DNA of 38,360 nt from Elusimicrobiota bacterium (GTDB taxonomy: Bacteria > Elusimicrobiota > Elusimicrobia > UBA1565 > UBA9628), in assembly GCA_013044195.1 (NCBI GenBank), contig JABEUV010000143.1:1-38360 (forward strand), read 5' to 3'. Below, piece after piece: positions 11,350 to 21,589 of this stretch (positions are counted from its first letter, which is position 1; each line of letters starts with the position of its first letter). A program made the translations under genes and the position numbers. Under the pieces are notes generated by a model that saw only the letters and a program-made list of their open reading frames with translations, made no database searches and was not told where the DNA came from.

Positions 11350-11374
11350 GCGCGGCGGACCCAGGGAGACTATC

Positions 11375-11458
11375 ATGCAGGACGCGATTTATCTGGGAAT
11401 GATCGTGGGCGTGCTCGCGCTGTGCGAGCTGTATGTGCGCTTTCTGTCGAGGCTATAA
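11375..11458 (+). CDS. Small membrane peptide preceding kdpF
   Basis: 27 codons, ATG preceded by a good ribosome site (CAGGGAGAC) about 6 nt away. The product is a single hydrophobic helix (LGMIVGVLALCELYV) with a charged end, RFLSRL. It ends 1 nt before the start of the KdpF peptide, so the two are almost certainly cotranslated. It resembles small helices I have seen near kdpF in other phyla, but I cannot name a family. It may be an extra KdpF-like stabiliser of the Kdp complex. Too short for most gene finders. Confidence 0.6.
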   Translation: MQDAIYLGMIVGVLALCELYVRFLSRL

Positions 11459-11459
11459 C

Positions 11460-11543
11460 ATGACCGACATCGTCCTGGCCGTCGTCTCGTGCGGTCTGAT
11501 CGCGTACCTGTTCGCGGCCATGCTCTGGCCCGAGCGCTTCTAA
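11460..11543 (+). CDS. kdpF: KdpF, small subunit of the Kdp potassium pump
   Basis: 27 codons encoding one membrane helix with the typical KdpF ending YLFAAMLWPERF (KdpF proteins usually end in YLxxALLxPExF). KdpF sits between KdpA and KdpB and stabilises the complex in the inner membrane. It begins 1 nt after the stop of the preceding 27-residue peptide and lies 16 bp before kdpA, as expected for kdpFABC. Confidence 0.85.
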   Translation: MTDIVLAVVSCGLIAYLFAAMLWPERF

Positions 11544-11559
11544 GATTGGGAGAATCTCG

Positions 11560-13287
11560 ATGACTGGGCTGAGTTTTTTGCAGTTCGTGTTGATCTTCGG
11601 CACCCTTCTGCTGACTACGAAGCCGTTAGGCGCCTACATGAAGAAGGTGTTCGGTGGCGAGCGCACCGTCCTGACGCCCGTCGTTGGGGCGCTGGAGAGT
11701 TGGATCTACCGCCTGTCCGGGATCGATCCGGGCGAGGAGATGAACTGGCGGCGCTACTGCGCGAGCGTGCTCGCGTTCAGCGCCGCGGGAGCCGTCATTC
11801 TTTACGTCCAACTGCGCTTCCAACAGTATTTGGGCCTCGACCGCGCGGGCGCTTCCGGCATCGATCCGGCGCTCGCGTTCAACACGGCCGTGAGCTTTAT
11901 GACGAACACGAACTGGCAGGCCTACTCCGGCGAGACCGCGATGACGTACGTCTCGCAGATGACGGGGCTCGCCTACCACAACTTCGTGTCGGCCGCGGCG
12001 GGCATCGCGGTCGCGGTCGCGGTCATGCGCGGATTCACGCGCGCGTCGTCGTCGACGCTCGGCAATTTCTGGGCCGATCTCGTGCGCGGCTGTCTATTTC
12101 TGCTCCTGCCGTTGTCGATCGCGGGCGGCCTCTTTCTCGTCTCGCAGGGCGTGATCCAGAACTTCAAGCCTTACGTGAAGGCGCGGACGCTCGTCGGCGC
12201 GGAGCAGACGCTCCCGATGGGGCCCGTCGCGTCGCAGGAGATCATTAAGCAGGTCGGCACCAACGGCGGCGGCTTTTTCGGCGCGAACTCCGCGCATCCG
12301 TTCGAAAACCCCACGCCGTTGACGAACTACGTCGCCATGCTCGCGATCTTCTTGATTCCGGCCGCGCTCACGTACCAGTTCGGCCTGATGGCCGGCGACA
12401 CGCGCCAGGGCTGGGCGATCTTCGCCTGCATGTCCGTGTTGTTCTTTGCCGGTTTCCTGGCGGCGAATTATTACGAGCAGAAGGGCAATCCCATCCTCGC
12501 CGCACACGGCGCCGATCAGGCCCAGAGCGCGAACTCGTCCGGCGGCAACATGGAGGGCAAGGAGGTTCGCTTTGGGATCGCGTCGAGCGCGCTGTTCGCG
12601 ACGATGACGACCGACGCATCCTGCGGAGCGGTCAACGCCCAGCACGACAGCTTCACGCCTCTGGGCGGGTTGGTGCCGCTGTTCAACCTGATGCTCGGCG
12701 AGGTGATCTTCGGCGGCGTCGGTTCGGGCTTCTACGGGATGATCCTGCTGGTCGTCGTCACGGTGTTCATCGCGGGCCTGATGGTCGGCCGCACGCCCGA
12801 ATACCTGGGCAAGAAGATCGAGGCGCGCGACATGAAATACGCGACGCTCGGCATCTTGATTCCGTCCTTCGTGATCCTGGGCCTGGCCGCCTGGGCGGCC
12901 GTGCGCCCGTCCGCGCTGATGAATCTGGGCAATGCGGGACCGCACGGGCTCTCCGAAATCCTTTATGCGTACAGCTCCGCCGTCGGCAATAACGGCTCGG
13001 CGTTCGGGGGCCTCAGCGCCGACAACTGGTTCTTCAACAACACGACCGGCTGGGCGATGCTGCTTGGGCGTTTCTTCATCATCGTGCCGGTGCTGGCGCT
13101 CGCGGGCTCGCTGGCTGGCAAGAAGCGCGCGCCGGAGTCGCTGGGAACATTCCCCACGCACACGCCTCTGTTCGTCGCCTTGCTGGCCTCGGTGACGATC
13201 ATCGTCGCGGGGCTCACGCATTTCCCGGCCCTGTCGCTCGGTCCCATCATCGAGCACCTCCTGATGCTGTCCGGCAAGCTGTACTAA
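11560..13287 (+). CDS. kdpA: KdpA, potassium-translocating channel subunit
   Basis: 575 residues, close to the usual length of about 560. KdpA is related to SKT-type potassium channels and has four pore loops. All four are visible: [55 protein letters not shown] and [14 protein letters not shown]. It selects K+ with micromolar affinity at the periplasmic side and passes it to KdpB. The start ATG has GGGAG about 6 nt upstream. It is followed after 4 nt by kdpB. No defect is visible. The unit is probably repressed by c-di-AMP through the upstream riboswitch. Confidence 0.97.
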
Positions 13288-13291
13288 AACC

Positions 13292-15328
13292 ATGGACAAT
13301 TCCCCGAAGCGCCGCGCCGCCGCCGATCTCTGGCAGGGTCCGATCGTCAAGACTGCCCTCGTCGATTCGTTCAAGAAGCTGGACCCGCGCCATCTTGCGA
13401 AGAACCCGGTCATGTTCGTCGTCGAGGTCGGCTCACTCGTCACGACGTGGTTCTGGATCGCCGGCCTGAGGGGCGGGGACCCGGAGACCGGCTTCGCCGG
13501 GCAGATCACGCTATGGCTGTGGTTTACAGTGCTGTTCGCCAACTTCGCCGAGGCGATGGCCGAGGGCCGCGGCAAGGCCCAGGCTGACTCTCTGCGCAAG
13601 ACGAAGACGGAGACTGTCGCCAAACGCTTGGTCGGGGGCGGTAAAACGGAAATCGTCAGCGCGGCCGAACTGCGCAAAGGCGACGTCGTGCTCGCCGAGG
13701 CCGGCGACGTCATTCCGGCCGACGGCGAGGTCGTCGAGGGCATCGCCTCGGTCGACGAGTCGGCCGTCACCGGCGAGTCCGCCCCCGTGATCCGAGAGAG
13801 CGGCGGCGATCGGTCGTCGGTCACCGGCGGCACGAAAATCAATTCGGACTGGATCAAGATTCGCGTGACCGCGAACCCCGGCGAGGGCTTCCTCGACAAG
13901 ATGATCTCGCTCGTCGAGGGCGCGCAGCGCCAGAAGACGCCCAACGAGATCGCGTTGAACATCCTTCTTGCGGGCCTGACGTTGATCTTCATCGTCGTGC
14001 TGATGAGCCTCCAGGCCTTCGCGATCTACTCGGGCGGGCCGGTGTCCGTCGTCACGCTCGTCGCCCTGCTCGTCTGCCTGATACCGACGACGATCGGCGG
14101 CCTGCTGTCGGCCATCGGAATCGCGGGCATCGACCGCCTGATGCAGAGCAACGTGCTGGCGATGTCGGGCCGCGCGGTCGAGGCCGCCGGGGACGTCGAC
14201 TGCCTCCTCCTTGATAAGACCGGCACCATCACGCTCGGCAACCGCATGGCGACGGAGTTCATCCCCGCTCCGGGCGTCACTTTGGAGGAACTGGCTCTTG
14301 ACGCCCAGCTTTCCAGCCTCAGCGACGAGACGCCGGAGGGCCGCTCGATCGTCGTGCTCGCCAAGCGGTTTGTTCCGAAGCCGACGAATATTCAGGATCG
14401 AGGGATGATCTTCGTTCCGTTCACCGCGCAGACGCGCCTGTCCGGCGTGAATGTCGGCGACGTCTCGATCCGCAAGGGCGCGGTCGACGCGGTCGCGGGC
14501 CTGGTGGACCGGATGCCGCCGGAATTGACCGCGGCCGTCGAGAAGATCGCTCGTTCCGGCGGTACGCCGCTTGCGGTCGCGCGCGACGGCAGGGCGCGCG
14601 GCGTGATCCACCTCAAGGACGTGGTCAAGGGCGGCATCCGTCGGCGCTTCGAGCAGCTGCGCGCCATGGGCATCCGCACGGTGATGATTACCGGCGACAA
14701 CCCGCTGACTGCGGCCGCGATCGCCGCGGAGTCCGGCGTCGACGACTTTCTTGCGCAAGCCACGCCGGAGAAGAAGCTGTCGCTGATCCGCCAGGAGCAG
14801 TCCAAGGGACGTCTTGTCGCGATGGTCGGCGACGGCACCAACGACGCGCCGTCGCTGGCGCAGGCCGACGTGGGCGTCGCGATGAACACCGGCACCATGG
14901 CCGCGAAGGAAGCCGGCAACATGGTCGATCTCGACTCGAATCCGACGAAGCTCATCGAGATCGTCGAGGTCGGCAAGCAGCTGCTGATGACGCGCGGGGC
15001 GCTGACCACCTTCAGCGTCGCCAACGACGTTTCGAAGTATTTCGCCATCATCCCCGCGATGTTCATGGGGCTGTTCCCGGAGATCGCCGCGCTCAATGTG
15101 ATGCGCCTGCACTCCCCGCACTCGGCGATCCTGGCCTCGGTGATCTTCAACGCCTTGATCATCGTCGTCCTGATCCCGCTAGCGCTGCGCGGCGTCAAAT
15201 ACCGGGCCTGGGGGGCGCACGCGGTGTTGCGCTACAACGCGCTTGTCTACGGCGTCGGCGGACTGATCGCGCCGTTCATCGGCATCAAGCTGATCGACAT
15301 GCTTCTCGTCGCGGCTCATCTGGGATAG
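13292..15328 (+). CDS. kdpB: KdpB, P-type ATPase subunit of the Kdp pump
   Basis: 678 residues, normal for the family. Actuator motif TGES at 160-163 (Ser163 matches the inhibitory phosphorylation site Ser162 of E. coli). Phosphorylation motif DKTGTIT with Asp308, [13 protein letters not shown], and [18 protein letters not shown] in the P domain are all present. Membrane helix 5 carries NDVSK, Asp579 and Lys582, matching the coupling dipole Asp583/Lys586 of E. coli. It hydrolyses ATP to drive K+ import with KdpA and KdpC in the inner membrane. Starts 4 nt after kdpA and ends 3 nt before kdpC. A degenerate paralogue lies at 19322-21064. Confidence 0.97.
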
Positions 15329-15331
15329 AAC

Positions 15332-15907
15332 ATGAAACTCTTCAAGCAGTCGTTTTTGATGAACATCTGGCTGACGATTCTCCTGGGACTTGCCTATCCC
15401 GTCCTCATGACGGTCTTGGCTCAGGTCCTATTCCCGCGCCGCGCGAACGGGAGCCTCATCATGCATGGAGGAAAAGTCGTCGGCTCGGAGTTGATCGGTC
15501 AGGCGTTCGCCGCTCCGAAGTACTTCCACGGCCGTCCCTCGGCCGCCGGAAGCGGCTACGACGGCTTGCAGTCGGGCGGTTCGAACCTGGGCCCGACCAG
15601 CAAGGCGTTGATGGCGCGCGTGGATGGCGACGTCGCGCGCGAGCGCAAGGCGGAGGGTCGTGCCGACCCCGTTCCGGTCGACCTTGTCACCGCGTCCGGT
15701 TCGGGCCTCGACCCGGATATCAGCCCGTCGGCCGCGCTGTGGCAGATACCGACCGTCGCGAAGGCCCGCGGCCTGGACGAATCCGCCGTGCGCGCTCTTG
15801 TCGAGAAATACACCGTGGGACGCACGTTCGGCCTTTTGGGCGAGCCGCGCGTCAATGTGCTGAAACTCAACCTCGCGCTCGACGCTTCGACGGCGAGGGC
15901 CCCTTGA
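15332..15907 (+). CDS. kdpC: KdpC, accessory subunit of the Kdp pump
   Basis: 191 residues, as usual. One N-terminal membrane helix ([21 protein letters not shown]) is followed by a soluble domain with the family blocks [46 protein letters not shown] and [10 protein letters not shown]. KdpC bridges KdpA and KdpB and raises apparent ATP affinity. It is the last gene of the canonical kdpFABC block; phosphoglucomutase follows after 105 bp. Confidence 0.96.
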
Positions 15908-15936
15908 GCCGCGCGGCGACGGGAGCGCTACTGGCA

Positions 15937-15966
15937 CCCGGCCGATGATCGAAGACGGCGGCCGGG
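15937..15966 (+). repeat. Perfect hairpin between kdpC and pgm
   Basis: CCCGGCCG (15937-15944) and CGGCCGGG (15959-15966) form an 8-bp stem with a 14-nt loop in the 105-bp gap after kdpC. No T-run follows, so it is not a standard intrinsic terminator. It may act as an mRNA 3' stabiliser or processing site separating kdpFABC from the genes after it. Confidence 0.45.
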
Positions 15967-16012
15967 ACGCATCTGGATTGCGCTCCGCGTCTTAATCATG
16001 CGATAACGAGTC

Positions 16013-17656
16013 ATGAGCATTCATCCGAACGCCGGGCAGAAGCCCGCGACGTCCCAGCTTATCGATGTCCAAAAGTTGATCGCGGCGTATTTCGACCGCA
16101 CGCCGGATCCGTCCGTCGCCGCCGAGCGCGTCTCCTTCGGCACGTCGGGTCATCGCGGCAGCGCGCTGCGTGGGTCCTTCAACGAGGCGCACATCGTCGC
16201 GATCACCGAGGCGATCTGCCGCTACCGCAAGAAAGAAGGCACGGACGGTCCGCTCTTTCTGGCGCGCGACACTCACGCGCTTTCCGCGCCCGCGCAGACC
16301 ACCGCGCTGGAGGTTCTGGCCGCGCGCGGCGTGGAGGTGAGAATCGACGCGGCCGACGGCTACACGCCGACGCCGGTCCTGTCCCATGCGATCCTGACGT
16401 ATAACAAGGGTCGCAAGACCGGTTTGGCCGACGGCATCGTGATCACGCCGTCGCACAATCCGCCGGAGGACGGCGGATTTAAATACAACCCGACCGACGG
16501 CGGACCGGCGGACACCGGCGCGACGAAGTGGATCGAGGCGGAGGCCAACCGACTATTGGAGTCGAAGCTTGCGGGTGTGGCGCGGCTGACGCCGGACAAG
16601 GCGCTCAAGTCCGCGACGACGCGGCGTCACGACTATCTGACGGCCTACGTCGACGATCTGGGTTCGGCCATCGACTTCGCGCCGCTGGCCGGCTCGGGCT
16701 TGAAGCTGGCGGTCGATCCGTTGGGCGGGGCGGGTGTGGCGTATTGGCCGCGCATCGCCGAGCGCTGGGGGCTTCCTCTGGAAGTCTTGAGCACGACGGT
16801 GGACCCGACGTTCCGGTTCATGTCGTTGGACTGGGATGGCAAAATCCGCATGGACTGCTCGTCGCGTTATGCGATGGCGGGCCTCATCGCGCACGCGGAC
16901 CGCTACAATGTGGTCCTGGCCTGCGACACCGACCACGACCGTCACGGCATCGTCGCGCGCGGCACGGGCCTGCTCAACCCGAACCATTATCTGTCCGTCG
17001 CGATCGACTATCTGTTTCGCCGTCGCGACGGCTGGAGCGCGCGCGCCGGGGTGGGCAAGACCATGGTGTCGAGCGCGATGATCGACCGCGTGGCCGCCGG
17101 CCTGGGCCGGACGCTCTACCAGGTTCCCGTCGGCTTCAAATGGTTCGTGCCGGGGTTGATCGACGGCTCGCTGGGCTTCGGCGGCGAAGAAAGCGCGGGC
17201 GCGTCCTTCCTGCGCCGCGACGGCTCCGTGTGGACCACGGACAAGGATGGAATCGTCCTGTGCCTGCTGGCCGCGGAGATGACGGCGCGCGAGGGAAAAA
17301 ACCCCGGAGAGCTTTACCGCGGCTTGACCGCCCGCTTCGGCGATCCCGTCTACGAGCGCGTGGACGCTCCGGCCACGCCCGCGCTGAAGTCCGCGCTACT
17401 CAAGCTCTCGCCCGAGGCGCTGGGGGCCACGGAGCTGGCCGGCGAGAAAATCTCGGCGGCGCTGACGAAGGCGCCCGGCAACGGCGCGGCCCTGGGCGGC
17501 CTCAAGGTGGAGACGGCCGGCGGTTGGTTTGCCGCGCGCCCGTCCGGCACCGAGGACGTCTATAAAATATACGCGGAGAGCTTCCGCGGCGCCGACCATC
17601 TGCGCCGCATTCAAGACGAAGCGCGCGCCTTGATCGCGGGGTTGCGGGCGGACTGA
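16013..17656 (+). CDS. pgm: Phosphoglucomutase (alpha-D-glucose phosphate-specific)
   Basis: 547 residues, the size of E. coli Pgm (546). It interconverts glucose-1-phosphate and glucose-6-phosphate through a phosphoserine. The active site TPSHNPPEDGGFKYNP is present with Ser147. The metal loop DTDHDRHG, substrate loop GEESAGASF and C-terminal phosphate-binding RPSGTEDVYKIYAE are intact. N-terminal FGTSGHRGSALRGSFNE is typical. It lies between kdpC and a KdpD-EIIA fusion on the same strand, only 23 bp before the latter, an unexpected place for a central-carbon enzyme. The pgm gap contains a hairpin; I see no convincing separate promoter. Confidence 0.95.
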   Translation: MSIHPNAGQKPATSQLIDVQKLIAAYFDRTPDPSVAAERVSFGTSGHRGSALRGSFNEAHIVAITEAICRYRKKEGTDGPLFLARDTHALSAPAQTTALEVLAARGVEVRIDAADGYTPTPVLSHAILTYNKGRKTGLADGIVITPSHNPPEDGGFKYNPTDGGPADTGATKWIEAEANRLLESKLAGVARLTPDKALKSATTRRHDYLTAYVDDLGSAIDFAPLAGSGLKLAVDPLGGAGVAYWPRIAERWGLPLEVLSTTVDPTFRFMSLDWDGKIRMDCSSRYAMAGLIAHADRYNVVLACDTDHDRHGIVARGTGLLNPNHYLSVAIDYLFRRRDGWSARAGVGKTMVSSAMIDRVAAGLGRTLYQVPVGFKWFVPGLIDGSLGFGGEESAGASFLRRDGSVWTTDKDGIVLCLLAAEMTAREGKNPGELYRGLTARFGDPVYERVDAPATPALKSALLKLSPEALGATELAGEKISAALTKAPGNGAALGGLKVETAGGWFAARPSGTEDVYKIYAESFRGADHLRRIQDEARALIAGLRAD

Positions 17657-17679: not shown

Positions 17680-19317
17680 ATGAGCGTTCTGAGCGTCGAG
17701 GAGTTGATCTCCAACCTTAAGTATTCGAAGGAGAGCCCGCTGCGCGTCTACCTGGGCGCGGCGGCCGGGGTCGGCAAGACGTTTCGAATGCTCCAGGACG
17801 GCAATCTTCTGCGCTCGCGCGGTGTCGACGTCGTCATCGGCTATCTGGAGCCGCACGATCGCCCTGAAACCGCCGCTCAAGTGCGGGATGTTCCCGAACT
17901 TCCTCGAAAAAAAGTCTCCTACAAAGGGGTGACGGTCGAGGAAATGGACCTGGACGCCCTGCTGGCGCGCAAACCCCAGGTCGCTTTGATCGATGAGTTG
18001 GCGCACACGAACGCCCCCGGCTCCAAGAACGCCAAGCGCTGGCAGGACGTCGAGACCTTGCTGGCCGCGGGCATCGCCGTGTTCTGCACGGTAAACGTCC
18101 AGCACATAGAGAGCGTCGGCGACATCGTCGAGAAGTCTTCCGGGATCTCCGTGCAGGAGCGCGTGCCGGACTCTTTTTTCCGTCTGGCCAAGGAAATGGT
18201 CATAGTCGACGTCAGCGTCGACGAACTGATTGGACGCCTAAAGGACGGAAAAATCTACCGAGCCGACAAGGTTGAGCGCGCGCTGGAAAGTTTTTTCACG
18301 CGCGGCAATCTTTCGACCCTGCGGGAGCTGGCGCTGCGCGAGCTGGCCGACGACGTGGAGCAGAAAGGCAAAGAGGACCGCGAGCGCGACACGCGCGGCG
18401 GCGCCAGCTCCTCGCTGAAGATGCTGCTGGCGCTCAGCGGCAACCCGGAGGCGAAGCGCCTTCTGCGCATCGGCGCGCGGCTGGCGGGGCGCCGCGATGC
18501 CAAGTGGTACGCGGTTGCCGTCAAGGCGCCGGATGCGACGCCGGCGGACGCGGGCATCGGCGGCGAGCTTGAGAAAAATATGCGTTTCGCTCGGGAGTTG
18601 GGCGCCCAGGTCGTCGAGCTAAAAGGGCGGCGCGTGGCCGACGCGCTGATCGACTTCGCCGCAAGGGAGGGCGCGACCGAGATCGTCATCGGCACGTCCG
18701 CCCGGGGCTGGTGGGATCGACTCTGGCGCGGCTCGATCGCCGAGCAATTGATGCGCAAGGCGCCGCATCTGGCCCTGCACGTGATTCCGGTCGGGCGCGA
18801 CGCGGAGGAGCCGGCCGCGGCCAGGACGTACGCGCCCGGAGCGTTTCTCCTGTCGAACTACTTGCCGGCCGAACGCGTTCTAGCGGGACTTCGCGGCGTC
18901 GAGACGATCGAGCAGGCGATTGCGATGTTGGTCGATCATCTCGCGCAGGTCAACCCGGATTTGCGCGATAACCGGCGCGTCTTTTTGGACGCGGTACTCC
19001 AGCGCGAGCGTCTCGACAGCACGTTCCTGGACACGGGCATCGCCATTCCTCACGCTTCGAGCGTCGAGGGCATCGTCGACGTGGAGGCCGTGCTTGGCCT
19101 CTTTCCCGAAGGGCTCTCCGCCGGCCCGGATAAACGAAAGGCGTTCCTGGTACTTCTTTTCCTGTCGCCGCTCGTGGGTCGTTCTCTGCACATGAAGTTC
19201 CTTCAGCGCATCGCGCGGGTGTTCGGCGACGAGACGACGGTGCGGGAGATCGCTTTCTGTAAGACGGGCGCGGACGCGCATGAGCGCTTGAGAGCCGTCG
19301 AGTCCGGACTGCGTTGA
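17680..19317 (+). CDS. KdpD sensor/USP fragment fused to PTS EIIA domain
   Basis: 545 residues. Residues 20-225 are the KdpD N-terminal domain: Walker A GAAAGVGKT (26-34), GYLEPHDRPET, the block ALIDELAHTNAPGSKNAKRWQDVE and FCTVNVQHIES. Residues 245-390 are a universal-stress-protein domain (VIGTSARGWWDRLWRGSIAEQLMRKAPH). The KdpD membrane helices, GAF and histidine-kinase domains are absent. Residues 395-545 are instead a PTS EIIA (type 2/Ntr) domain with LDTGIAIPHASS; His458 matches the phosphorylated His. E. coli PtsN (EIIA-Ntr) is known to bind KdpD, so this fusion may hard-wire that contact. No kdpE is in the window. A dead KdpB paralogue follows after 4 nt. Confidence 0.9.
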   Translation: MSVLSVEELISNLKYSKESPLRVYLGAAAGVGKTFRMLQDGNLLRSRGVDVVIGYLEPHDRPETAAQVRDVPELPRKKVSYKGVTVEEMDLDALLARKPQVALIDELAHTNAPGSKNAKRWQDVETLLAAGIAVFCTVNVQHIESVGDIVEKSSGISVQERVPDSFFRLAKEMVIVDVSVDELIGRLKDGKIYRADKVERALESFFTRGNLSTLRELALRELADDVEQKGKEDRERDTRGGASSSLKMLLALSGNPEAKRLLRIGARLAGRRDAKWYAVAVKAPDATPADAGIGGELEKNMRFARELGAQVVELKGRRVADALIDFAAREGATEIVIGTSARGWWDRLWRGSIAEQLMRKAPHLALHVIPVGRDAEEPAAARTYAPGAFLLSNYLPAERVLAGLRGVETIEQAIAMLVDHLAQVNPDLRDNRRVFLDAVLQRERLDSTFLDTGIAIPHASSVEGIVDVEAVLGLFPEGLSAGPDKRKAFLVLLFLSPLVGRSLHMKFLQRIARVFGDETTVREIAFCKTGADAHERLRAVESGLR

Positions 19318-19321
19318 ACGC

Positions 19322-21064
19322 ATGATTGCCCGCCGACCGTCTCTTGAGGCGTTGGCGGCGGCGGTGCGCGGGCTGCGTCTGCGCGCCGCCGTTCGCCGTC
19401 CGGCGGTGCTCGCGCTGGAACTGGCGGCGGCAGCTTCGGCGTGGAGCGCGTATGCCGCGCCGGAGGGCCGCGCGGACGCCGCGGCTTTGGGAGCGGCCGC
19501 GTTGGGCGCGGCCTATTTTCTCGGCCTGTGTGGGAACTTGGCGGAAGCGCGCGCGCTCGAACAGGCGCGCGCGTGGCGGGAGGCGGGCCGCGGCCTACGC
19601 ACGCGTCATGCCTTCGCCGATGGAACTGATGAGGCGGCCGACGCGGAACTTTTGAGCCCCGGAGACGCAGTCGTCATCGCCGCCGGCGAGATGATCCCGG
19701 CCGACGGGGTCGTCATTGACGGGGCCGCGACCGTCGACGAGTCGGCGCTGACCGGCGAGTCCGCGCCCGTCCTGCGGGAGGCCGTTGCGCCGCGCGACCG
19801 CGTGATCGGCGGCGCGCGCGTGCTCTCCGATCGGTTGAAAATACGCGTCGACGGACCCCCCGGCGCGGGCTTGTTGGCGCGACTGGCCGTTCTATTGGAC
19901 GCGTCTTTGGGACGCGCGGCCGGCCTCGAGACGGCGCTGGCCGCGGCGGCGCTTCTGCCGGCGGTGTTCGTTCTTGCCGTTCATCGCGAGGCTCTCGCGG
20001 CGGCGCGTTTCGCCGCACGTCCGGACGCGGCGTTCGGAGCGCTGGCCGTGTTCCTTCTCGCGCTGACTCCGACGGCGCTTCCGGCGCTGGCCTTCGCGAC
20101 CCGCTCGTCATCGACGCGCCGTTTGCTGGCACGGGGCTTGCTCGCGCGCGATCCAAGCGCGGCCGAGGACGCCGCTCGCGCCGATCCCGTGGTCGTGGAG
20201 GAGGATGCCGCGACGTTCCGGCGCCGTGCCGTGGAGTTCGTTCCGGCGCCGGGAATCTCGCAGAATATTTTGGCCGACGCGGCCCAACTCGCGGCGCTGA
20301 TCGACGAGACGCCCGAAGGACGCAGCCTTGTCGCGTTGGCGCAAGCCAAAGGCATGCGCGGCCGGCGGCTTGCGGATATACCGGATCGCCGTTTCGTGCC
20401 GCTGTCGGCGCACACGCGCGTCAGCGGTTTGGACGCGGGAGATTTGATCTATCGCCGCGGTCCCGCGGCGACGATCGAGCGTCTGGTCGGCCGTTTTCCG
20501 CCGGAGTTGGAGGTCGCCGTCGCGCTCATGCAGCGCGACGGCGACGAAGCGATCGCGATCGCGCTCGGCGGAAAGGTGTTGGGCGTCGCACGATTGCGCG
20601 AGCCCGCCGACGGCCTCTCGGCGCGCGTGCGCCGCTTGCGCGCGTCCGGCCGTCGGAGCGTGCTTGCCGCGCCGGTTCCGTCTCCGGCACTGCGCGGGTG
20701 GGCCGACGCGCTGGGCGTGGAATTCGCCGATGCGCGCGCGCTTGCCCAATCGGGCGCGACGTTCGCGCGAGGACTTCGGACGTCGCCTCGCGCGGAGGCG
20801 TCGATTCTAAACCTGCGCGGCGACCCGGCGCTTTCCGTCGCCGCGGTCGACGAGGCGCTCGCGGCGCGCCGCGCTCGCGCCGTTGCCGACGGGGCGTCCC
20901 TGTTCAGCGACGCCGCGAAAGCCGCCGCGGCGGCTTTCGCTTTCTGCGCGACGGCGCGCGCCGGAACCATCGGCGTCTCACCGGAGCAGGCCTTCGCGTT
21001 GGCGGCCTGGAGCCTTGCCGCGCCGCTGGCGCTTTGCGTCGCGGCGCTGGCGGGTTATATTTAG
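19322..21064 (+). CDS. Catalytically dead KdpB paralogue (pseudo-P-type ATPase)
   Basis: 580 residues, uninterrupted, colinear by eye with KdpB at 13292-15328. Kept: GNLAEARALEQARAW (Kdp[16 protein letters not shown]), AGEMIPADGVVIDG, DESALTGESAPV with TGES at 144-147, LTPTALPAL, VEFVPAPG and [14 protein letters not shown], and a DAAK (Asp530/Lys533) matching the KdpB DVSK dipole. Lost: DKTGT is VVVEEDAATF near residue 293, so there is no phosphorylatable Asp; TGDNP is absent; GDGTND and its flank are deleted, explaining most of the 98-residue shortening. It cannot run a P-type cycle. Membrane helices are predicted near both ends and around 200-260. The 4-nt gap to the KdpD-EIIA gene suggests coupling and a regulatory role. 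Confidence 0.82.
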   Translation: MIARRPSLEALAAAVRGLRLRAAVRRPAVLALELAAAASAWSAYAAPEGRADAAALGAAALGAAYFLGLCGNLAEARALEQARAWREAGRGLRTRHAFADGTDEAADAELLSPGDAVVIAAGEMIPADGVVIDGAATVDESALTGESAPVLREAVAPRDRVIGGARVLSDRLKIRVDGPPGAGLLARLAVLLDASLGRAAGLETALAAAALLPAVFVLAVHREALAAARFAARPDAAFGALAVFLLALTPTALPALAFATRSSSTRRLLARGLLARDPSAAEDAARADPVVVEEDAATFRRRAVEFVPAPGISQNILADAAQLAALIDETPEGRSLVALAQAKGMRGRRLADIPDRRFVPLSAHTRVSGLDAGDLIYRRGPAATIERLVGRFPPELEVAVALMQRDGDEAIAIALGGKVLGVARLREPADGLSARVRRLRASGRRSVLAAPVPSPALRGWADALGVEFADARALAQSGATFARGLRTSPRAEASILNLRGDPALSVAAVDEALAARRARAVADGASLFSDAAKAAAAAFAFCATARAGTIGVSPEQAFALAAWSLAAPLALCVAALAGYI

Positions 21065-21091: not shown

Positions 21092-21589
21092 TCAGCGGGA
21101 AGGGCGGGCTTCCAGGGCGGCGATGCGGCGGGCGTGGTCGTCGAGGACGCGGGGAAGGAGCACCGACTCTCGCCAGAGAGTTTCCATTCGGGAGACGGCG
21201 GTGTCCATGGTCTTGGACACGTCGCTGCGCAATGCGCGCATCTCGCCGCGTAGATCGTCGCCCAGGCGGTCGATGCGGACGTTGGTCTTCACGATCTCGT
21301 GCGCCAAGCGCCGAGTGGAGGCCGCGAGTTCTGTTTTGACCGACGAAACGTCCGCTTTAACACTGGCAAGGTCGGTCTTCACGCCGGCAAGATCGGTCTT
21401 CACGCCGGCGAGGTCGGTCTTCACGCCGGCGAGGTCGGTCTTCACGCCGGCGAGGTCGGTCTTCACGCCGGCGAGGTCGGTCTTCACGCCGGCGAGGTCG
21501 GCTCTCACGTCGGCAATGTCGGATTTCAGTTCGGACTTCAGGGCGAGCAGGTCGCCTTTCACGACTGGGGTGGGATCAAAATCGGACAT
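21092..21589 (-). CDS. Coiled-coil protein with perfect heptad repeats
   Basis: 165 residues. After a short N-terminus it has six identical heptads DLAGVKT (about residues 31-72) flanked by diverged ones, then a long charged helix (THE pattern RIDRLGDDLRGEMRALRSDVSK) ending in HARRIAALEARPSR. The Leu/Val spacing gives a continuous parallel coiled coil; no signal peptide or membrane helix is seen, so it is probably cytosolic. A TATTAT hexamer lies 6 nt before the ATG, suggesting a leaderless start; an AGGAGG sits too far upstream (12 nt) to be an ideal ribosome site. Function unknown. It converges on the pseudo-KdpB gene 27 bp away. Confidence 0.8.
   Translation of the reverse strand: MSDFDPTPVVKGDLLALKSELKSDIADVRADLAGVKTDLAGVKTDLAGVKTDLAGVKTDLAGVKTDLAGVKTDLASVKADVSSVKTELAASTRRLAHEIVKTNVRIDRLGDDLRGEMRALRSDVSKTMDTAVSRMETLWRESVLLPRVLDDHARRIAALEARPSR
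21367..21513. repeat. 21-bp tandem repeat (seven units)
   Basis: Seven consecutive 21-bp units with core GGTCGGTCTTCACGCCGG, the middle four identical and the outer ones with one to four changes. Each unit encodes one heptad (DLAGVKT on the minus strand) of the coiled-coil gene. Nucleotide-level identity indicates recent slippage or unequal exchange, so copy number may vary between strains. Confidence 0.92.

What the first reader, a model, noticed from the sequence alone, without database searches (positions are those of the whole stretch)
19322..21064. Intact but catalytically dead KdpB paralogue inside the kdp locus
Seen: 580 codons without a stop, colinear with KdpB, keeping TGES, the ADGxVxxG actuator core, [12 protein letters not shown] and the DxxK pair of helix 5, but with VVVEEDAATF in place of DKTGT, and TGDNP and GDGxND missing. 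Known: P-type ATPases need the Asp of DKTGT and the GDGxND loop. Inference: the protein no longer pumps, but keeps the surfaces that dock with KdpA/KdpC or with KdpB regulators. A pseudo-ATPase immediately after a KdpD-EIIA fusion could be a competitive or inhibitory subunit controlling Kdp. I know of no described pseudo-KdpB.
Basis: partly seen in the sequence, partly recalled or inferred. Interest (0 to 1): 0.9.

Follow-up and report, generated by a model that had tools for sequence, protein, structure and literature searches.

The report
Dead K+-pump subunit kept by selection
Next to a bacterial potassium pump sits an intact gene for a copy of the pump's motor subunit that has lost its catalytic parts, and a sister species has lost the whole pump but still keeps this copy under selection, so it probably does a job other than pumping.

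Summary
Window 19322-21064 (+) encodes a 580-aa KdpB relative without DKTGT, TGDNP and GDGxND, and with TGES intact. It is not a decaying remnant. One species of the same genus (G017) has an 80%-identical, open orthologue at the syntenic place. dN/dS is 0.21-0.26, lowest in the N domain (0.11-0.13), and no frameshift has accumulated. What is kept is the cytoplasmic A domain (39 of 66 KdpB-conserved columns) and N domain (29 of 41). The membrane helices and P domain, the parts that meet KdpA and do catalysis, are degenerate, and M7 is missing. G017 lacks kdpA, kdpB, kdpC and kdpD altogether: two clean deletions spared pgm and this gene, and fused it in frame to kdpD's start. A live Kdp pump is therefore not needed for its retention. 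The neighbour is a kinase-less KdpD-EIIA with intact Walker A/B. Published work shows that this KdpD domain phosphorylates the serine of TGES in KdpB's A domain, exactly the part preserved here. Best mechanism: a non-pumping phospho-acceptor or decoy for that kinase, with a Kdp-independent role as the main rival. It is found in only 2 of 341 genomes of the phylum.

The parts
19322..21064 (+). pseudo-KdpB, 580 aa, catalytically dead KdpB relative
   Evidence: orthologue 80% identical in G017
19592..19861 (+). actuator (A) domain of pseudo-KdpB, residues about 91-180, confident in the AF2 model
   Evidence: pLDDT 79-92 for most ten-residue blocks, 56 at the TGES loop 141-150; 39 of 66 KdpB-conserved columns kept over residues 70-196
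19751..19762 (+). TGES motif, residues 144-147; equivalent of the serine of KdpB (S162) phosphorylated by KdpD
   Evidence: PMC11018627
20189..20218 (+). VVVEEDAATF in place of the DKTGT phosphorylation site
20219..20611 (+). nucleotide-binding (N) domain, residues 300-430; the most constrained part, but F377->L and K395->R at the ATP site
   Evidence: pLDDT 76-96; dN/dS 0.11-0.13
20612..20887 (+). degenerate, shortened second half of the P domain; TGDNP deleted, GDGxND lost
20909..20920 (+). DAAK, equivalent of the M5 D583/K586 pair, kept in both species
17680..19317 (+). kinase-less KdpD: KdpD (atypical serine kinase) + Usp + PTS EIIA fusion, 545 aa; Walker A GAAAGVGKT, Walker B DE, EIIA IPH
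16013..17656 (+). phosphoglucomutase-like gene (pgm) between kdpC and kdpD-EIIA
   Evidence: read from the translation; orthologues in G017, G011, G007, G015
15332..15907 (+). kdpC
13292..15328 (+). kdpB, active-type with all motifs
11560..13287 (+). kdpA
11460..11543 (+). kdpF (MTDIVLAVVSCGLIAYLFAAMLWPERF)
   Evidence: named by position and sequence, not by a family search

Best explanation
Shown: the gene encodes a KdpB descendant that cannot pump by the P-type mechanism (no phosphorylated Asp, no GDGxND, P domain degenerate, M7 missing), but whose A and N domains are held by purifying selection in two species. One of these species has lost kdpFABC and kdpD-EIIA. Inferred: it is a membrane-anchored A/N module that serves as a non-pumping phospho-acceptor (decoy or docking partner) for the atypical serine kinase of the adjacent KdpD-Usp-EIIA protein. 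That kinase normally inactivates KdpB by phosphorylating the serine of TGES. At high K+ the kinase would act on both proteins, and the dead copy would titrate or tether it, setting how sharply the real pump is shut off, with the EIIA and Usp domains as inputs. In G017 the module was left behind after loss of pump and kinase, so it is either recently orphaned or has a second, Kdp-independent target.
For: TGES with its flanks is kept in both copies although its catalytic use is gone. A and N domains are preserved while TM and P parts are not, and constraint follows the same pattern (dN/dS N 0.11-0.13, A 0.16-0.27, TM5-6 0.46-1.1). The gene starts 5 bp after kdpD-EIIA. That KdpD is the kinase-less type with intact Walker A and B. 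In E. coli this domain alone phosphorylates KdpB S162, supported by KdpB E161, and is modelled on the A domain only (PMC11018627); E161 and S162 are both present here. Short KdpDs can be controlled by c-di-AMP (PMC11018627), and the genome has a DAC cyclase and an HPr for the EIIA domain. In G017 the orthologue is fused in frame to the kdpD start and upstream region.
Against: G017 keeps the gene with no KdpD domain and no KdpA, KdpB or KdpC, so the proposed partners cannot explain its retention there. K357, one of the two N-domain residues that bind phospho-S162, is Q, although those salt bridges are non-essential (PMC9651954). TGES could be kept for structural reasons. No expression or binding data exist.
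Confidence: 0.37

Rival explanations
1. Kdp-independent membrane scaffold: the A/N module was repurposed for another partner (another kinase, transporter, or a function linked to the adjacent pgm), and its place in the kdp locus is historical.
For: G017 lost kdpFABC and kdpD-EIIA by two clean deletions but kept pgm and this gene, fused in frame. KdpB-consensus losses since the split are similar in the two lineages (12 in G017, 8 in G000). The long stem branch (1.9-2.7 changes per site) shows a long separate history.
Against: No partner is identified; G011, G007 and G015 have pgm without it. In the window it is tightly coupled to kdpD-EIIA (5 bp).
Confidence: 0.3
2. Gene in slow decay: relaxed constraint with GC-biased mutation, not yet broken, especially in G017.
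For: Ala 26% against 12-14% in neighbouring kdp and pgm genes, 38% in TM5-6; dN/dS is at the top of the range of its neighbours (0.04-0.32); TM5-6 reaches 1.1 by YN00; only two genomes of the phylum have it; it was retained after loss of Kdp in G017.
Against: Third-position changes 169 against a neutral expectation of 96 (maximum 118 in 2000 shuffles); amino-acid changes 115 against 194 (minimum 169); no frameshift at dS about 0.5; expected stops 3.5, none seen (P=0.03). N-domain dN/dS is 0.11-0.13.
Confidence: 0.2
3. Inhibitory or competitive Kdp subunit that replaces KdpB in a complex with KdpA/KdpC.
For: Gene position beside kdpFABC; KdpB fold; D530/K533 pair kept.
Against: Membrane helices keep only 4/18, 14/46, 4/16 and 5/25 of the KdpB-conserved columns and M7 is gone; the gene persists without KdpA and KdpC in G017.
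Confidence: 0.1

Closest known systems
KdpB (TIGR01497), P1A-type ATPase subunit of KdpFABC
   Same: A-domain and N-domain fold and order, [13 protein letters not shown]5 D..K pair; best PDB sequence and fold matches are all KdpB
   Different: no DKTGT Asp, TGDNP or GDGxND; P domain and TM helices degenerate, no M7; 196 bits against a cut-off of 528; 27-34% identical to the KdpBs aligned
KdpB S162 regulation by the KdpD atypical serine kinase (E. coli, Deinococcus geothermalis; PMC11018627)
   Same: kinase-less KdpD-Usp next to the pump; Walker A/B intact; TGES substrate sequence present in both KdpB and pseudo-KdpB
   Different: here the KdpD carries a C-terminal EIIA domain and there is a second, catalytically dead substrate-like protein
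KdpD-like non-kinase potassium sensor (NF038185) and KdpD-EIIA fusions of Syntrophaceae MAGs (L005, L007)
   Same: KdpD + Usp + EIIA architecture; all fall among the kinase-less KdpDs in the tree (89/89)
   Different: 35-36% identical over full length; those loci have one normal kdpB and no pseudo-KdpB

Membership tests
KdpB (catalytic subunit of KdpFABC) | score above the TIGR01497 cut-off | tested here: not met
   196.4 against 527.9 bits
KdpB (catalytic subunit of KdpFABC) | phosphorylated Asp in DKTGT (D307) | tested here: not met
   EEDAA / EKDAA in the two copies
KdpB (catalytic subunit of KdpFABC) | TGDNP and GDGxND of the P domain | tested here: not met
   deleted / GVEFAD
KdpB (catalytic subunit of KdpFABC) | TGES A domain and KdpB-type N domain | tested here: met
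KdpB (catalytic subunit of KdpFABC) | seven membrane helices with the KdpA interface | tested here: not met
   M7 absent, hydrophobic segments degenerate
Pseudoenzyme (selected, catalytically dead homologue) | loss of catalytic residues in an intact ORF under purifying selection, with an orthologue | tested here: met
Pseudoenzyme (selected, catalytically dead homologue) | no residual catalysis; protein made | not testable with these tools
   needs expression and an ATPase assay
KdpD atypical serine kinase (neighbour 17680-19317) | Walker A G-x5-GKT, aromatic adenine residue, Walker B DE | tested here: met
   GAAAGVGKTF, VALIDE
KdpD atypical serine kinase (neighbour 17680-19317) | NF038185 curated cut-off | tested here: not met
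   371 against 550 bits
Local paralogue (duplicate) of the window kdpB | groups with the window/G002/G025/G029 KdpB clade | tested here: inconclusive
   tree places it by Limisphaerales KdpBs; AU p=0.081 for the forced clade; long branch

The most novel reading that the evidence does not exclude
A family of selected pseudo-P-type ATPases in which the KdpB actuator and N domains were turned into a dedicated phospho-substrate or adaptor for the KdpD serine kinase, able to outlive the pump itself.
Probability: 0.25. Interest if true: 0.75.

Novelty: new variant of a known kind. Interest (0 to 1): 0.55.

Why it matters
Pseudo-kinases and pseudo-proteases are well known; a selected pseudo-P-type ATPase in bacteria was not found in the papers searched. 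It would give K+ homeostasis an extra control layer on the recently discovered KdpD serine kinase. G017, which lost the pump but kept the dead subunit, makes the question of what the module does without a pump directly testable.

Tried and rejected
Chance ORF kept open by GC: rejected by orthology, codon-position pattern, and absence of frameshifts and stops. Assembly chimera: rejected, because two separate assemblies hold it at syntenic places between the same neighbours. Wider orthologue search: only G000 and G017 in 341 genomes of the phylum; in 293 genomes of the order of G344 only full-length KdpBs up to 273 bits were listed, from a loose first look; plasmids only KdpB-like partial matches; the genome-contig scan gave nothing above 37% with substantial coverage of the query, but it relied on six peptide patterns. 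AF2 gave no confident P domain or membrane part, so nothing is built on it. Literature searches for pseudo P-type ATPases or a pseudo-KdpB found none in the held library. Idea that a foreign kdp cassette (kdpD-EIIA plus kdpB) was acquired and its KdpB died: suggestive, not proven.

Full report
Observation. The ORF 19322-21064 (+) is real and reads as described. It is a KdpB relative (TIGR01497 6e-58; E. coli KdpB 6e-53) but well below the KdpB cut-off, with the Pfam A-domain family and no P-domain (Hydrolase) match. In an alignment with 55 KdpBs, mapped to E. coli numbers, E161 and S162 of TGES, S384, D583 and K586 are kept. D307, D518, the TGDNP loop, F377 (L), K395 (R) and K357 (Q) are changed in both copies; E348 is kept in G000 and is A in G017. 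It therefore cannot form the aspartyl phosphate and probably binds ATP poorly.

What is conserved. Of the columns at least 80% conserved among KdpBs, pseudo-KdpB keeps 39/66 in the A domain and 29/41 in the N domain, but 4/18 in TM1-2, 14/46 in TM3-4, 4/19 and 18/70 in the two halves of the P domain, 4/16 in TM5 and 5/25 in TM6. M7 is missing. AlphaFold2 (57 rows) gives mostly high confidence for the A domain (the TGES loop is lower) and high confidence for the N domain, with low confidence elsewhere. The closest solved structures are KdpB chains.

Selection. One genome of the same genus, G017, has an 80%-identical open orthologue, the only one besides the window in 341 genomes of the phylum. 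Whole-gene dN/dS is 0.26 (NG86) or 0.21 (YN00), against 0.10/0.05 for pgm and 0.04-0.32 (NG86) for syntenic neighbours. By domain: N 0.11-0.13, A 0.16-0.27, TM5-6 0.46-1.1. Shuffling the same substitutions gives far fewer third-position changes than seen (96 against 169) and 3.5 expected stops. Pairwise dN/dS cannot separate the time before from the time after Kdp loss in G017.

A natural experiment. Window and G017 are colinear around this gene apart from gaps, two of which hold the kdp genes: 11357-15995 (kdpFABC) and 17688-19350 (kdpD-EIIA) are absent from G017, while the porin-like gene, pgm, pseudo-KdpB and the following genes are present. G017 has no KdpA, KdpB, KdpC or KdpD domain anywhere in a 95%-complete assembly. 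At the second gap the sequence upstream of kdpD (TTACACTGACTC) and its first codons are fused in frame to about codon 10 of pseudo-KdpB. G025 and G029 of the same family have porin-kdpFABC-kdpD, full-length kdpD in G025, so the pump beside the porin gene looks ancestral and the absence in G017 looks like loss. G011 has pgm and the following genes without kdp or pseudo-KdpB. Retention of an open gene after loss of the pump argues against an obligatory role as a Kdp subunit.

Origin. In trees of the A and N domains the two pseudo copies sit on a stem of 1.9-2.7 changes per site, next to KdpBs of Limisphaerales and not with the window's KdpB. Forcing them together costs 7.1 log units, AU p=0.081, so a local duplicate is not excluded. 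Profile scores agree: up to 273 bits for KdpBs in the order of G344, 226 for the window's own KdpB. KdpD-EIIA falls with kinase-less KdpDs, including Syntrophaceae KdpD-EIIA fusions. A joint foreign origin of kdpD-EIIA and the later dead KdpB is possible but unproven.

Mechanism. Silberberg et al. [quoted passage not shown] E161 helps, the complex was modelled with the A domain alone, and kinase-less KdpDs keep this function. The window's KdpD-EIIA has the required Walker A and B motifs, and pseudo-KdpB, 5 bp downstream, keeps exactly that substrate. The best-supported function is therefore a non-pumping acceptor or decoy for this kinase (inferred). The genome also has a diadenylate cyclase and an HPr, so c-di-AMP and PTS inputs to KdpD-EIIA are possible. 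The weak point is G017, where the kinase is gone. A Kdp-independent role or recent orphaning must be invoked there, and I keep these as rivals (0.3 and 0.2).

Limits. Both genomes are fragmented and unnamed, distribution is known from two genomes, and nothing is known of expression.

Noticed in passing
17680-19317: KdpD-Usp-EIIA fusion without histidine kinase domain, with the IPH histidine of EIIA; the same architecture occurs in Syntrophaceae MAGs (L005 14550-16244, L007 11657-13600).
   Followed up: partly
16013-17656: A phosphoglucomutase-like gene lies between kdpC and kdpD-EIIA; in G017 and G011 it remains without kdp genes.
   Followed up: partly
11375-11458: A 27-codon ORF (MQDAIYLGMIVGVLALCELYVRFLSRL), one probable membrane helix, directly upstream of kdpF.
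   Followed up: no
21092-21589 (-): ORF with tandem 7-residue repeats (DLAGVKT), coiled-coil-like; absent in G017, which has a 553-aa hydrophobic protein gene at this place (L114 16926-18587).
   Followed up: no
   Followed up: no
L034 4106-6118: A KdpB with DKTGI in place of DKTGT.
   Followed up: no
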